DNA of 25,517 bases. Source: a virus. The stretch is from positions 1 through 25,517 of IMG/VR virus record IMGVR_UViG_3300031625_000488. One strand, 5' to 3'. Of this stretch, positions 9,717 to 25,517 are shown in pieces. The position numbers and the translations under genes are program-made. The first letter of the stretch is position 1, and each line of letters opens with the position of its first letter. Under the pieces are notes generated by a model. The model made no database searches and was not told the origin of the DNA. It saw only the letters and a list, made by a program, of their open reading frames with translations.

Positions 9717-10871
9717 GTGCCGCGTAAGCGTTTATTCTTAGACATGGACGTAGTCGATGCAGCCCGTGAACGGCTCCGACACGTTTATGACACTTTTGAC
9801 ACGGTCTGTGTTCAATTCAGCGGAGGCAAAGATTCCTCTGCCGTGTTGCTTCTTGCAAAAGAAATCCACGAAGAACGCAATTTGGGGCCGGTCAAAGTCA
9901 TCTTCCGTGATGAAGAAATGGTCAGCCCTGCTGTTATCCGCTACATGAAGTGGGTCAGAGATCTTCCATGGGTTGATATGGAATGGTATTGCCTGCCCAT
10001 GGGGCAAGAAATTTGGGTGCTTGGACGCAGAGAGTATGTTCTGCTCTGGTCAAAGCAGCGAGAAGAAGAGGGCCGTCTTGTTCGGGAGATGCCTCCATGG
10101 GCTATCACCGCTAGGGATTTCGGACTAGATAATGGCGTAGTGGTTCCGCAGCCTGTCGATTACTACACGATGCAAGGGAAGGAAGGCCGAACTGCCTTCC
10201 TCACTGGCATCCGGGCAAATGAATCTATGATCCGATATCGGTCTGTTGTTCAGAAACTCCATGAAAACTATATCAATCGCCCATACCGACTTAGCAAAGC
10301 CATTCCGCTGCGGCTTGTTAAACCCATCTATGACTGGATCACGGATGACGTTCTTAAGTATGTGTCCGTGGAGAAGGACTTCCCGTACTGCGAATATTAT
10401 GATTACGCGGCAATGTCTGGAGCAAATACACGGGTGGGAATTCCATTACATTCTGTTGCTGCTCGCAGGCTCAATGATGTAGTTACAACGGAGCCAGAAT
10501 TCTATGACGCTTTGGTAACAGCATTTCCTCACATAGACGCTCAACGTCGATTGTGGAAGGATTTCAATATCGAAGCCCTGATTGCTTCTTACTCTCAGGA
10601 AAGTTGGGACGGGGTTCGTCGTTGCATCAACGAGAACATGCTTTCACCGGGAAAACATAAAGACGCTATGAAATTCGTAGCAGCATTTCGCAAAAAGCGC
10701 AATAACGATCCTTATGGTTATCCGATTGATCACTTGGTTCGGATACTGTTGCTAAACGAGTTCCGCCACACGGCTCCTTCGCCAGTGGGTCCAAAAACGA
10801 AGGCTCATAGAATGCGTGTCGCCGCTTTACGGGAAGCCGACGATTTAGACAAGGTGGATGATCTTTTATGA
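9717..10871 (+). CDS. IbrA-like PP-loop (PAPS-reductase-family) protein
   Basis: 384 residues with an ATP-binding PP-loop SGGKDSS (35-41), VIFRDEE (61-67), the conserved LTGIRANESMIR segment (162-173) and PIYDWITDDV (203-212). Together these match the PAPS reductase superfamily, DUF3440/IbrA branch. The ECGxH-type C-terminal cysteine motif of true sulfonucleotide reductases is not seen, so sulphate reduction is unlikely. In E. coli, IbrA and IbrB together activate prophage eib genes, and related pairs are widespread in phages; the chemistry is not settled. Here an IbrB/ParB-like gene follows with a 4-base overlap (ATGA), strongly supporting the pairing. The start is GTG 9717, with AGGG 8 bases upstream of it and a structured leader before that. 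Confidence 0.85.
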   Translation: MPRKRLFLDMDVVDAARERLRHVYDTFDTVCVQFSGGKDSSAVLLLAKEIHEERNLGPVKVIFRDEEMVSPAVIRYMKWVRDLPWVDMEWYCLPMGQEIWVLGRREYVLLWSKQREEEGRLVREMPPWAITARDFGLDNGVVVPQPVDYYTMQGKEGRTAFLTGIRANESMIRYRSVVQKLHENYINRPYRLSKAIPLRLVKPIYDWITDDVLKYVSVEKDFPYCEYYDYAAMSGANTRVGIPLHSVAARRLNDVVTTEPEFYDALVTAFPHIDAQRRLWKDFNIEALIASYSQESWDGVRRCINENMLSPGKHKDAMKFVAAFRKKRNNDPYGYPIDHLVRILLLNEFRHTAPSPVGPKTKAHRMRVAALREADDLDKVDDLL

Positions 10872-19591: not shown

Positions 19592-19607
19592 AAACCTGCG
19601 TTCCCTG

Positions 19608-19680
19608 TGGGAGCGGCGGGAATCGAACCCGCAACCGTCGGATTAAAAGTCCGCTACTCTGCCAATTGAGTTACGCTCCC
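19608..19680 (-). tRNA. trnK: tRNA-Lys (anticodon TTT)
   Basis: Read leftward: acceptor GGGAGCG with CGCTCCC, D stem ACTC/GAGT with loop AATTGGCA, an anticodon loop CTTTTAA giving anticodon TTT, a T arm GCGGG-TTCGATT-CCCGC and discriminator A; 73 nt in total. One mismatch (G-A) lies at the top of the anticodon stem. CCA is not encoded. Decodes AAA/AAG, which a phage less GC-rich than its host would use more often. Confidence 0.93.
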
Positions 19681-19684
19681 GAAG

Positions 19685-19768
19685 TGGCGATGGCGGGACT
19701 TGAACCCGCATGACCCTAGAGTCGGGAGATTTTAAGTCTCCTGTGTATGCCCGTTCCACCACACCGCC
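19685..19768 (-). tRNA. trnL: tRNA-Leu (anticodon TAA)
   Basis: Read leftward: acceptor GGCGGTG with CATCGCC (one G-U pair), anticodon stem GGAGA/TCTCC with loop CTTAAAA giving anticodon TAA, a long variable arm typical of class II tRNAs, T arm GCGGG-TTCAAGT-CCCGC and discriminator A; 84 nt in total, no encoded CCA. It decodes UUA, the rarest leucine codon in GC-rich actinobacteria. It begins 6 bases after the stop of the gene at 19775, so it is probably on the same leftward transcript as tRNA-Lys. Confidence 0.93.
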
Positions 19769-22434: not shown

Positions 22435-22785
22435 ATGAGCATGAAATCTATCCGGGCTAAAATCCGGCACAATAATAGACAAATAGAAATTGGGTATTAC
22501 CAAACCCAAATGCAAGCAACCGCCGCTAAGGCTGGAGCGCACGCGGCTTTGGACAAGTGGGAAGCATTTAATCCCCCCAAGTCCGCGCCAAAACAGAAGT
22601 TGCCTAGCGTCGAAACGTTAAAGCATTTCGTTTCTCAAGGGATTTACGATTCTGAGATTCAAGAACTTGGTGAGATGATCGTGGCTCGGGCAAATCTGAT
22701 ACGCCGAATGAAACAAGCAAGTAAGGCTACACTCGGGCGCTTTGATTTCGTCACTCCGGCGGAAGACTTCGATATTCTAATTTAG
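22435..22785 (+). CDS. Basic, helical hypothetical protein
   Basis: 116 residues from ATG 22435, with GAGAGGA 8-14 bases upstream and a TACACT promoter before it. It is basic at the N-terminus (MSMKSIRAKIRHNNRQIEIG), largely helical, with an Ala-rich first half and a central KSAPKQKLPSVETLKHFVSQ. No family recognised. The first GG-periodic array starts immediately after its stop codon. Basic charge and size would allow nucleic acid binding, but there is no motif to support that. Confidence 0.65.
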   Translation: MSMKSIRAKIRHNNRQIEIGYYQTQMQATAAKAGAHAALDKWEAFNPPKSAPKQKLPSVETLKHFVSQGIYDSEIQELGEMIVARANLIRRMKQASKATLGRFDFVTPAEDFDILI

Positions 22786-23535
22786 ACACGGCAGGCGAGG
22801 TGTGGCGTGGCGTGGCCCGATCAGGCCCGGCATGGCGCGGTAGGGCGAGGCAGGCACGGTTTGGTTTGGCTGGGCACGGCGGGGCGTGGCGAGGCAGGCA
22901 TGGCAGGCTTGGTTTGGTTTGGTCAGGCTAGGCACGGCAAGGCAGGCGCGGCAGGGCAAGGTTGGGATTGGTTAGGCTGGCCTAGGCACGGCAGGCTCGG
23001 TTTGGTTAGTCATGGCGAGGCAGAGTACGGCATGGCAGGCTCGGTTGGGTATGGCAGGGCGTGGCTTGGTCCGGCAGGGCACGGTAAGGCAGGCATGGTC
23101 AGGCTCGGCTCGGCGTGGTCGGGCGGGGTTCGGCACGGTAAGGCAGGCACGGCTCGGCTCGTTCCGGCAGGGTCTGGTACGGCGGGGCATGGTAGGGCGA
23201 GGCAGGCACGGTGTGGTTTGGTTCGGCATGGCAGGCATGGTTGGGCTTGTCTGGGCGAGGTCAGGTCTGGTTAGTCATGGCGAGGCAGGCACGGTGTGGT
23301 TGGGATTGGTTAGGCTGGTCTAGGCATGGCAGGCACGGTTTGGCGCGTCAGGGCTAGGCGTTGCCGGGTTCGGCATGGCAGGCGCGGTGCGGTTTGGCAC
23401 GGCAAGGCAGGGTTCGGCACGGCAGGCTAGGCGCGGCACGGTCGGTTCGGCGCGGTGCGGTGCGGCGCGGCAGGCGCGGTGCGGTATGCCGCGGCAAGGC
23501 ACGGCTCGGCTCGGTTCGGTATGGCAGGCAAGGCT
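22785..23535 (+). repeat. GG-periodic degenerate repeat array 1 (about 750 bp)
   Basis: About 750 bases in which GG recurs nearly every 4-5 bases on the + strand. Units are NNNGG, such as CACGG, CATGG, TTTGG and CGCGG, mixed with shorter CAGG units; GGCAGGCACGG-like strings are frequent. The strand is strongly G-rich over C and low in A outside the NNN positions. It begins with GACACGGCAGGCG right at a stop codon and ends in CAGGCAAGG about 28 bases before a promoter. Longer segments are duplicated within it. Frames through it give only low-complexity Pro-rich or Gly/Arg-rich translations, so it is noncoding. The spacing of GG pairs permits two-tier G-quadruplexes. Function unknown. Confidence 0.85.
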
Positions 23536-23562
23536 TGCAATAGAACTGTAACATTCAAATAC

Positions 23563-23591
23563 TTGACAAAGGCTTACAGTTTCGATACACT
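23563..23591 (+). promoter_or_regulatory. Promoter for the 23658-24790 pair
   Basis: TTGACA (23563-23568, perfect -35), a 17-base spacer and TACACT (23586-23591). CATCGGCACGG follows at 23597-23607, identical to the start region of the promoter at 20544. A 5' hairpin CGGAA/TTCCG (23605-23609/23614-23618) lies in the leader. Confidence 0.72.
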
Positions 23592-23657
23592 ACTTTCATC
23601 GGCACGGAAACCCTTCCGGTCGTTACCGTAAACTAACTAACGAGAGGAATAACTATT

Positions 23658-24293
23658 ATGGCTACATCAGTAGCAACATCATTGACCAAAATCGTTCCTA
23701 CGGTTGTACAGATTGAAATTGAGGGTCTCACACCCCTGATCTGCAACAACTTTTCACAGAAGATGAAGGAAAAGATGAGGTTGGCACAGTCTGGCGGCAA
23801 GCCGCCGAAGGAGCCTAAGGATCCTGCGGCACTGTTTGAGGGTGCGAAGTATCTGCTCCCCGACGGCTCCTACGGTTTCCCGGCTGCCGGATTCAAGGGT
23901 GCTTGTGTAAGCGCCGGTCGTTTCTTCAACGGCATCACCATGACAGCATTGCGTCAGGGTATCTTTGTCCACGGCGAGGGTCCGGACCAGTTGGTTCGCC
24001 TCACCGGGTTCACCGATGAACCCATTATGCGCGAAGATGCTGTCCGCAACGCTACCGGGGTCGCTGACCTTCGGTACCGTCCCATGTTCGAGAATTGGGG
24101 TGCAACCATCAAGGTTGAGTTCATTTCTTCGCTCCTGTCGCTGGACAGTGTTATCAGCATCGTAGATGCAGCCGGTATCGGCGGTATCGGTGAATGGCGT
24201 CCCACGGCTCCGAGAAGCAATGGCGACTATGGTCGTTTCCGGACCGTAGAGGGCGGCGTGTCTATTCTTGAAGAAGCACCGGAGGCCACCTGA
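23658..24293 (+). CDS. Glycine-motif phage protein, possibly RAMP/Cas7-like; function unknown
   Basis: 211 residues from ATG 23658, with a CGAGAGGA ribosome-binding site. Distinctive parts are VQIEIEGLTPLICNNFSQK (17-35), a low-complexity Lys/Pro stretch, GSYGFPAAGFKGACVSAGR (70-88), MREDAVRNATGVADLRYRP (124-142), and the glycine loop GIGGIGEWRP (173-182) with GDYGRF (189-194). The 'GFPAAGFKGA' and late G-rich loop recall RAMP/Cas7-fold RNA-binding proteins; I recall similar uncharacterised proteins in other phages. That link is a resemblance, not an assignment. It shares a strong promoter with the following gene and the pair is bracketed by the two GG-periodic arrays. Confidence 0.75.
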   Translation: MATSVATSLTKIVPTVVQIEIEGLTPLICNNFSQKMKEKMRLAQSGGKPPKEPKDPAALFEGAKYLLPDGSYGFPAAGFKGACVSAGRFFNGITMTALRQGIFVHGEGPDQLVRLTGFTDEPIMREDAVRNATGVADLRYRPMFENWGATIKVEFISSLLSLDSVISIVDAAGIGGIGEWRPTAPRSNGDYGRFRTVEGGVSILEEAPEAT

Positions 24294-24790
24294 TGCGCGA
24301 AGTTGTCGAAGATGAAGACGTTGAGACAACCGGAGAGGTAGAGGTTGTGCCTCGCAAGACAACGGTTGATCACATCAACGATGTCATCACCGACTTGCAG
24401 TCTGATGGGGTTACCCCAGAGGAATTGTTTGAAATGGTGAAGGCGGATGAAAACCATCCGTTGCGTCATCGTTTCACATGGGAACAGGATCATGCTGCCT
24501 ACAAGTACAACATCCTTGAAGCCCGCACGATTCTTCGTCAGGTCGTGTTGATTTCGGCTGGCGGATCAGAAACAATGCGTGCGTTCGTGCCCATTGAGGT
24601 TGTTGAGAATCGCAGGGAGTACGTTCCCACGAACGTCGCCTTAGCGAATCCGACAGGACGGGCACAGTTGTTCAACCGGTACCGTTCCACCTTGCGTGGA
24701 TACCGGCAGGCACTCTCCGCCTTTGAAGAGTTCACACCAGTTCTCTCAGCAATTGAGGATCTGCCAGAACTTTCCGTAGACGTAGAGTAA
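24293..24790 (+). CDS. Hypothetical phage protein paired with the 23658 gene
   Basis: 165 residues; the start ATG 24293 overlaps the previous stop by one base (TGATG), so the two are translationally coupled. The N-terminus is acidic (MREVVEDEDVETTGEVEVV), the centre has HPLRHRFTWEQDHAAYKYNILEARTILRQV (about 55-84), and the C-terminus is helical (RYRSTLRGYRQALSAFEEF) with an acidic end. The 'HPL--xF-W---xAA--Y---xAR' pattern recurs in phage proteins of unknown role, as far as I recall. No catalytic residues are evident. A 9-bp hairpin follows at 24816-24844. Confidence 0.72.
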   Translation: MREVVEDEDVETTGEVEVVPRKTTVDHINDVITDLQSDGVTPEELFEMVKADENHPLRHRFTWEQDHAAYKYNILEARTILRQVVLISAGGSETMRAFVPIEVVENRREYVPTNVALANPTGRAQLFNRYRSTLRGYRQALSAFEEFTPVLSAIEDLPELSVDVE

Positions 24791-24815
24791 CAACAAAATA
24801 ATCAGGGGAATGGTT

Positions 24816-24844
24816 GGGAGAGGGTGGCTTTGCTGCCCTCTCCC
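24816..24844 (+). terminator. Hairpin after the 23658-24790 pair
   Basis: GGGAGAGGG 24816-24824 pairs perfectly with CCCTCTCCC 24836-24844 around an 11-base loop. A C-run rather than a T-run follows, so termination strength is uncertain. It lies between the gene pair and the second GG-periodic array. Confidence 0.5.
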
Positions 24845-24854
24845 TCCCCCCGTT

Positions 24855-25067
24855 GACACGGCAGGCGCGGTCAGGCAGGGCTGGTTTCGGAGCGGTTTGG
24901 CTAGGCACGGTCTGGCAGGGCAGGCGCGGATCGGTTAGGCAGTGCTGGGTTAGGTAGGGCAAGGCATGGCAGGCAAGGCACGGCGCGGCCGCGTGAGGTA
25001 AGGCAGGGTCGGGTTAGGCATGGCAGGCGGGGTAAGGCCGGGTAGGGCAAGGCATGGTCAGGCAAGG
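24855..25067 (+). repeat. GG-periodic degenerate repeat array 2 (about 210 bp)
   Basis: The same kind of repeat as array 1: GG every 4-5 bases, with units CACGG, CATGG, CAAGG, CGCGG, TTAGG, and CAGG. It starts with GACACGGCAGGCG, the same 13 bases that open array 1, and ends in CAGGCAAGG, the same 9 bases that close array 1. It is G-rich on the same strand. It is followed by about 60 bases, with a small inverted repeat GTAGC/GCTAC (25081-25085/25091-25095), before the next gene. Noncoding. Confidence 0.83.
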
Positions 25068-25129
25068 AAATGTTAATGGGGTAGCATAGTCGCTACTCGG
25101 ATAAAACTATCTGAAAGAGGGGAACCAAT

Positions 25130-25517
25130 ATGAAAGAATTTAAACCATTGAACAAAATAATCTACCCCCTACTAACCGGGTTGATTATATTCCTAATCAT
25201 ATTGATTACCACTACAAGATCCGCTGACGCCAGCCACGACACGATCTACACCCCGTGCGACACCGAATACGGGTTCATTCACATGACATACGAAGAATGG
25301 GCCGCGCACATCGCCACAATGGAAGCCAACGGCACAATCCCACCCGGCATGGTGTTCCGTTACTGGGAAGAACTCCACGGAGGCAAAGGTGGCACCGTTC
25401 TAGAAGACGGAACCATCCCAGCATGGGACACATGGGCCTACAACCTCACCGACGGGCAAATACTATCCATAGACGACTGGGCCAACGGACAACACCCAGC
25501 AATCGAAAACCTCATGT
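25130..25517 (+). CDS. Membrane-anchored or secreted protein, N-terminal part (cut by window edge)
   Basis: The frame starts at ATG 25130, with GAGAGG-like GAGGGG 8-13 bases upstream, and stays open to the window end (about 129 residues). A short basic N-terminus (MKEFKPLNK) precedes a strongly hydrophobic stretch (IIYPLLTGLIIFLIILITTT) and then a likely cleavage region, RSADASHD. The exported part is acidic and Trp-rich: MTYEEWAAHIATMEANG, GMVFRYWEELHGGKG and LSIDDWANG. Export or membrane anchoring is likely. No family recognised. Expression would start in the gap after array 2; no clear promoter was found there. Confidence 0.7.
   Translation, partial: MKEFKPLNKIIYPLLTGLIIFLIILITTTRSADASHDTIYTPCDTEYGFIHMTYEEWAAHIATMEANGTIPPGMVFRYWEELHGGKGGTVLEDGTIPAWDTWAYNLTDGQILSIDDWANGQHPAIENLM

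What the first reader, a model, noticed from the sequence alone, without database searches (positions are those of the whole stretch)
22785..25067. Two long GG-periodic repeat arrays of unknown type
Two noncoding stretches (about 750 and 210 bases) have GG on the + strand nearly every 4-5 bases, as degenerate NNNGG pentamers mixed with CAGG tetramers. They are not tandem copies of one unit, not CRISPR, and not coding. The regular GG spacing would allow two-tier G-quadruplexes in the + strand DNA or in RNA. Both lie in intergenic gaps downstream of a stop codon and upstream of the next gene. Possible roles are a fork or transcription barrier, an RNA decoy or protein-binding array, or a recombination site. 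I know of no described family like this.
Basis: partly seen in the sequence, partly recalled or inferred. Interest (0 to 1): 0.85.

Follow-up and report, generated by a model that had tools for sequence, protein, structure and literature searches.

The report
Phage VIPR guide-RNA arrays
The two GG-rich stretches are banks of guide RNAs of a VIPR system, a recently described phage-encoded relative of CRISPR that reads DNA two letters at a time and is thought to let one phage silence competing phages.

Summary
Both stretches (22786-23535, 24855-25069) are YNNGG pentamer arrays, far beyond chance (lag-5 G autocorrelation 0.60; shuffles never exceed 0.10 and 0.24). YNNGG is the guide-RNA (vrRNA) repeat of VIPR systems (2026 preprint PMC13142463). 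The gene between the arrays (23658-24293) is a Vipr: its family profile finds one PDB sequence, "SUSP1 Vipr protein", E=6e-12, and its model matches Csm3/Cas7 RAMPs, Z about 12. The next gene (24293-24790) is a conserved partner, with homologues at 110 of 121 related vipr loci. YNNGG arrays accompany vipr at 111 of 121 loci versus 0 of 43 control stretches. The CAGG tetramers are delimiters cutting the arrays into about 17 guides; the two variable letters carry about 2 bits each across 362 guides. An otherwise unrelated phage carries the same cassette at 81% DNA identity with almost all guides different. Relatives' guides modestly favour the published 1-nt-skip rule; no convincing target was found for this window's guides. 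New member of a known kind; guide function here is inferred.

The parts
22786..23535 (+). vrRNA array 1: 17 CAGG delimiters; 13 CAGG-to-CAGG segments of 7-11 whole YNNGG units, one irregular 44-nt segment, and short segments of 5 and 1 units
   Evidence: same pattern beside vipr at 111 of 121 related loci
22785..22795 (+). leader GACACGGCAGG of array 1 (shared with array 2 and, as GACACGGCAG, with L005)
   Evidence: sequence
22796..22850 (+). guide g1, 11 units; NN code GA GT GT GT CC CA CC AT GC AG GA
23040..23089 (+). guide g6, 10 units; NN code TC TG AT AG GT TT CC AG AC AA
23094..23143 (+). guide g7, 10 units; NN code AT CA TC TC GT CG GG TC AC AA
23148..23202 (+). guide g8, 11 units; NN code AC TC TC CC AG CT AC GG AT AG GA
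23236..23285 (+). guide g10, 10 units; NN code AT TG TT TG GA CA CT TA AT GA
23475..23524 (+). guide g15, 10 units; NN code GC GC AT GC AA AC TC TC TC AT
23563..23591 (+). promoter-like site before vipr: TTGACA - 17 nt - TACACT
   Evidence: consensus match only; 1 found, 1.6 expected by chance; flank conserved in L005
23658..24293 (+). vipr: 211-aa RAMP protein, G-rich loop AGIGGIGEWRP
   Evidence: family profile vs PDB 36pp 'SUSP1 Vipr protein' E=6e-12; AF2 pLDDT 85.8, Csm3/Cas7 matches Z about 12; dN/dS about 0.24 vs L005
24293..24790 (+). vap candidate: 165-aa conserved partner gene, start overlaps the vipr stop
   Evidence: homologue at 110 of 121 vipr loci; phrog_15946; no known fold found
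24816..24844 (+). strong hairpin (13 bp) between vap and array 2, kept in L005
   Evidence: z -4.6 and -4.8
24853..24858 (+). TTGACA just before array 2, possible -35 box of the array
   Evidence: sequence; kept in L005; no -10 box found by the scan
24855..25069 (+). vrRNA array 2: 4 CAGG delimiters, guides of 11, 9, 10 and about 8 units
24866..24920 (+). guide h1, 11 units; NN code GC CA AG TG TC GC TT TA AC CT AG
24974..25023 (+). guide h3, 10 units; its 3' half aligns to the one guide left in L005's array 2, mostly with differences at N and Y positions
23518..25132 (+). extent of the cassette shared at 81-83% DNA identity with the otherwise unrelated phage of L005

Best explanation
This is a phage-borne VIPR locus: array 1 - vipr - vap - array 2, all on the + strand. 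The arrays are DNA templates for short guide RNAs (vrRNAs). In each YNNGG unit the GGY scaffold would be held by a filament of the RAMP protein Vipr, and the exposed NN pair reads two bases of a DNA target, with one target base skipped between units. In-frame CAGG tetramers divide the arrays into about 17 guides of 7-11 units; I take CAGG to be the processing or start/end mark of a guide. The Vipr-vrRNA complex would bind matching genes of competing phages or prophages and silence them, helped by the partner protein. Shown here: the repeat code, the delimiters, Vipr homology and fold, the conserved partner gene, the association at more than 100 related loci, guide turnover in a transferred cassette. 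Inferred from the preprint's SUSP1 and P. fulva experiments: transcription, processing, RNP formation, DNA silencing. Unknown: the targets of these guides.
For: YNNGG with GGY constant and NN variable equals the published vrRNA repeat. Per-position entropy over 362 guides of 82 loci: 1.30, 1.98, 2.00, 0.45, 0.74 bits (guides were selected for G and Y, not for NN). Vipr: E=6e-12 to PDB 36pp SUSP1 Vipr, the only hit; the listed structural matches are CRISPR RAMPs, E down to 4e-6, Z about 12. Locus: arrays at 111/121 vipr loci vs 0/43 controls, 110 of 111 on vipr's strand; vap homologue at 110/121. Guide length mostly 8-14 units, mode 10, against 9-16 published. CAGG is 417 of 522 in-frame tetramers. 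Targets: relatives' guides against held DNA give 10 hits at E<0.01 with a 1-nt skip (2 shuffled) versus 2, 4, 3 with skips 0, 2, 3. Best: a guide of L021 matches 22/24 in L023 with its first 10 units perfect; a guide of L077 matches 16/16 in the vipr gene of L062; by my reading of the codons the skipped base sits at the wobble position in both. Cassette shared between unrelated phages with guides replaced.
Against: No convincing target for this window's own guides in six IMG/VR scans (extension), in itself or in the L005 phage. No structured 3' tail repeats with each guide, unlike the SUSP1 type. Two guides of relatives found nothing in 198 mycobacterial genomes. No expression data. Some of the 10 skip-1 hits come from duplicate elements, and one from a contig fetched for that match, so the excess is modest.
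Confidence: 0.94

Rival explanations
1. Nucleic-acid structure element: the GG spacing forms two-tier G-quadruplexes or an R-loop that blocks a fork or RNA polymerase; base identity at N does not matter.
For: GG every 5 bases on one strand; G-rich RNA that folds more stably than its shuffles (z -3.2).
Against: Does not explain the Y position, the CAGG delimiters at multiples of 5, the fixed strand relative to vipr (110 of 111), or the constant pairing with a RAMP gene. Two-tetrad quadruplexes are weak in general (own knowledge).
Confidence: 0.03
2. Relic: a VIPR cassette that is decaying in this phage, its arrays no longer used.
For: No targets found; some units depart from YNNGG; short segments of 1 and 5 units.
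Against: vipr is open and under purifying selection (dN 0.098, dS 0.409); the arrays hold their 5-nt register for 750 nt.
Confidence: 0.1
3. Low-complexity coding repeat or assembly artefact.
For: Long ORFs cross the arrays, and some public records annotate proteins there (UmaThurman gp40).
Against: The frame shifts at every CAGG and the N letters are free, so no protein is kept; the same structure occurs in isolate phages and bacterial genomes.
Confidence: 0.01

Closest known systems
VIPR (Viral Interference Programmable Repeat), preprint PMC13142463; characterised type II systems of Escherichia phage SUSP1 and a Pseudomonas fulva prophage
   Same: RAMP protein of about 20 kD, one adjacent partner gene, flanking intergenic YNNGG guide repeats with constant GGY and variable NN, phage-encoded
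   Different: Guides here are packed head to tail with only a CAGG tetramer between them; no repeated 3' tail seen. By wording it may be one of the preprint's other array architectures, such as 'staggered arrays with overlapping vrRNAs', but the supplement could not be read, so no type number is assigned.
VIPR-like loci of Mycobacterium phages of genus Cheoctovirus (Quico, Philus and others) and Gordonia phages (UmaThurman, Pipp), annotated as hypothetical proteins
   Same: Vipr 41-49% identical, homologous vap, YNNGG arrays with CAGG delimiters
   Different: Different guides; one main array per locus in those viewed, placed upstream of vipr (Quico, Philus) or between vipr and vap (UmaThurman)
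Class 1 CRISPR effector subunits Csm3/Cas7
   Same: RAMP fold (Z about 12) with a glycine-rich loop
   Different: No CRISPR repeats and no other cas gene seen; the guide code is interrupted rather than contiguous

Membership tests
VIPR | Vipr RAMP-family protein | tested here: met
   Profile vs PDB SUSP1 Vipr E=6e-12; model matches Csm3/Cas7
VIPR | Glycine-rich loop of RAMPs | tested here: met
   AGIGGIGEWRP; G173, G176, R181, P182 invariant in 44 sequences
VIPR | Thumb domain that kinks the guide | not tested
   No guide-bound model was made
VIPR | vrRNA of 9-16 YNNGG repeats, constant GGY, hypervariable NN | tested here: met
   Segments of mostly 7-11 units in the window, mostly 8-14 in relatives; NN entropy about 2 bits
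VIPR | Guides in intergenic DNA flanking vipr | tested here: met
   Upstream of vipr and downstream of vap; arrays at 111 of 121 related loci
VIPR | Adjacent vap gene | tested here: inconclusive
   Conserved partner gene at 110 of 121 loci, but sequences of vap1-6 were not available for comparison; fold search found nothing
VIPR | Conserved structured 3' tail on each vrRNA (shown for the SUSP1 clade) | tested here: inconclusive
   No tail between guides, only CAGG. The preprint reports other array architectures
VIPR | 1-nt-skip target recognition | tested here: inconclusive
   Supported by guides of relatives; no target for the window's guides
VIPR | vrRNA expressed and bound by Vipr | not testable with these tools
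   Needs RNA data
VIPR | Carried mainly by phages or prophages | tested here: met
   Virus record with terminase; relatives in isolate phages and bacterial genomes
CRISPR-Cas | Identical repeats separated by unique spacers, with cas genes | tested here: not met
   No conserved repeat beyond the 5-nt scaffold; no PADLOC or NCBIfam match for the two cassette proteins

The most novel reading that the evidence does not exclude
A compact VIPR variant whose guides are stored head to tail with a 4-nt CAGG mark, so that one locus holds about 17 guides in under 1 kb, and whose vipr-vap cassette moves between unrelated phages while its guide bank is rewritten: a phage-owned, exchangeable guide library with rapid turnover.
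Probability: 0.35. Interest if true: 0.7.

Novelty: new member of a known kind. Interest (0 to 1): 0.5.

Why it matters
It places an unlabelled metagenomic phage locus, and a set of mycobacteriophage and Gordonia phage genes still called hypothetical, in a system proposed as the ancestor of class 1 CRISPR. The Mycobacterium phages with this array type grow on a laboratory strain, so guide processing, the role of CAGG and the unknown partner protein can be tested directly. The two cassettes in unrelated phages show how guide banks change while the machinery stays.

Tried and rejected
Target searches for the window's guides in IMG/VR with 8- or 9-unit cores: g8 0 hits; g6 6, g1 8, g7 5, h1 7, g10 17 contigs. 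Extension to the full guide gave nothing beyond chance. One g10 hit is 20/20 (L175, 920-949), but with 17 core hits that has about a 7% chance, and the skipped base is not at the wobble of the ORF there, so it is not claimed. Guides against the window itself and the L005 phage: nothing. Two guides of mycobacteriophages against 198 mycobacterial genomes: nothing. CRISPR: rejected. G-quadruplex barrier: not needed. Rfam: only the two tRNAs. Partner protein: no significant sequence or fold match in the PDB, so its role stays open. Two earlier queries of the genome collection failed or found nothing; another alignment worked. The host was not identified; terminase and helicase relatives are spread over many hosts.

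Full report
Observation. The two stretches are real and far beyond chance. Array 1 is 22786-23535, array 2 is 24855-25069. GG runs end 5 nt apart in 112 of 143 and 32 of 40 intervals, otherwise mostly 4 nt. Lag-5 autocorrelation of G is 0.605 and 0.595; 1000 dinucleotide shuffles reach at most 0.104 and 0.24, and the best 215-nt window in the first 22.7 kb is 0.20. Seven strict YNNGG units in a row occur 18 times, all in the arrays on the + strand, none expected. The true unit is YNNGG: first base C or T, two variable bases, GG.

Identity. A paper search for pentanucleotide repeats in phages brought up PMC13142463, a 2026 preprint that describes VIPR systems: a RAMP protein, Vipr, an accessory protein, Vap, and guide RNAs (vrRNAs) of 9-16 YNNGG repeats in which GGY is constant and NN specifies a DNA target with one base skipped between pairs. 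The window fits the protein, repeat and locus features; the tail, the vap type and the targets could not be settled.

Vipr. The gene between the arrays, 23658-24293, encodes 211 aa. A profile of it and six relatives finds exactly one sequence in the PDB, 36pp 'SUSP1 Vipr protein', E=6e-12. Its AlphaFold2 model (pLDDT 85.8) matches CRISPR RAMPs: Csm3 of type III-A, type VII and type III-B subunits, Foldseek E down to 4e-6, Z about 12 over about 165 residues. The glycine-rich loop AGIGGIGEWRP is invariant at key positions in 44 relatives. Neither the PADLOC nor the NCBIfam library knows it.

Partner. The next gene, 24293-24790, overlaps the vipr stop. Homologues exist at 110 of 121 vipr loci. 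Its model (pLDDT 83.5) has no significant match in the PDB. It is the vap candidate; which vap it is cannot be told.

Distribution. Relatives of this Vipr occur in 33 phage records, mostly Mycobacterium and Gordonia phages, at 161 or more IMG/VR places, and in genomes of Actinomycetota, Alphaproteobacteria, Bacillota and a few others. Of 121 vipr loci, 111 carry at least 6 of 10 consecutive YNNGG units, against 0 of 43 control stretches; the array is on vipr's strand in 110 of 111 and mostly downstream. More distant loci use a looser repeat and other marks: GTCAGAT in L007, GGCAGTT in L008.

The CAGG tetramers. They are not noise. Across loci 417 of 522 in-frame tetramers are CAGG. In the window the segments between successive CAGGs are whole multiples of 5, with one exception of 44 nt. 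Array 1 so divides into 13 segments of 7-11 units, the irregular one, and short pieces of 5 and 1 units; array 2 into 4 guides. Over 362 distinct CAGG-to-CAGG guides from 82 loci the mode is 10 units, and entropies at the five positions are 1.30, 1.98, 2.00, 0.45 and 0.74 bits: the two N positions are free, the rest is scaffold. The guides were picked for G and Y content, so the low values are partly by selection; the high NN values are not. I read CAGG as the guide border; that it is a processing site is inference.

Guide turnover and cassette transfer. L005 lies in a 53.9-kb phage contig with a Vipr 87% identical. Compared with the window, the only shared DNA is 23518-25132 at 81-83% identity, that is the cassette from the last unit of array 1 to just past array 2; apart from it, one weak 99-aa match is all that is shared at protein level. 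In L005 array 1 is gone and array 2 holds about one guide, whose differences from guide h3 lie mostly at N and Y positions, while leader, hairpin, promoter region and trailer are kept. vipr is under purifying selection (dN 0.098, dS 0.409). So the machinery is stable and moves, the guides change.

Targets. With all guides of the related loci against all DNA held, the 1-nt skip gives 10 hits at E<0.01 (2 in shuffles), the other skips 2, 4 and 3. The best two are a guide of L021 against a coding gene in L023 (22/24, first 10 units perfect) and a guide of L077 against the vipr gene of L062 (16/16), both with the skipped base at the codon wobble. This agrees with the preprint's rule and its remark that some guides aim at other VIPR systems. 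The excess is modest and includes duplicate elements. For the window's own guides six scans of IMG/VR gave only chance-level matches after extension, and the L005 phage and the window itself hold none.

Verdict. A VIPR locus in an uncultivated phage, with two multi-guide arrays. Identity is well supported; expression, processing, silencing and targets are inferred or open. It is a new member of a known kind; whether CAGG-delimited arrays are one of the preprint's seven types could not be checked because its supplement could not be read.

Noticed in passing
L002 3518-3841 (Gordonia phage UmaThurman gp40); L004 3545-4477 (Mycobacterium phage Philus gp52): Public gene calls lie in or start inside vrRNA arrays: gp40 is almost wholly array, gp52 begins in the array and runs into vipr. 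These annotations are probably wrong.
   Followed up: partly
window 23518-25132 vs contig of L005: A vipr-vap cassette is shared by two phages that have nothing else in common at DNA level, which suggests transfer as a module.
   Followed up: yes
window 24816-24844: A strong 13-bp hairpin between vap and array 2, kept with a different loop in L005; no T run follows. Possible RNA-processing or termination signal.
   Followed up: partly
L007 3580-4120 and L008 2857-3300: Degenerate forms of the array (GG scaffold relaxed) with delimiters GTCAGAT and GGCAGTT in place of CAGG.
   Followed up: no
window 22837-22870 and 23188-23220; 22962-22991 and 23300-23329: Pieces of array 1 are near copies of each other, differing mainly at N or Y positions: guides seem to arise partly by duplication within the array.
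   Followed up: no
window 9717-10871 and 19607-19768: A PAPS reductase-like gene and two tRNA genes (Lys, Leu) in the same phage contig.
   Followed up: no
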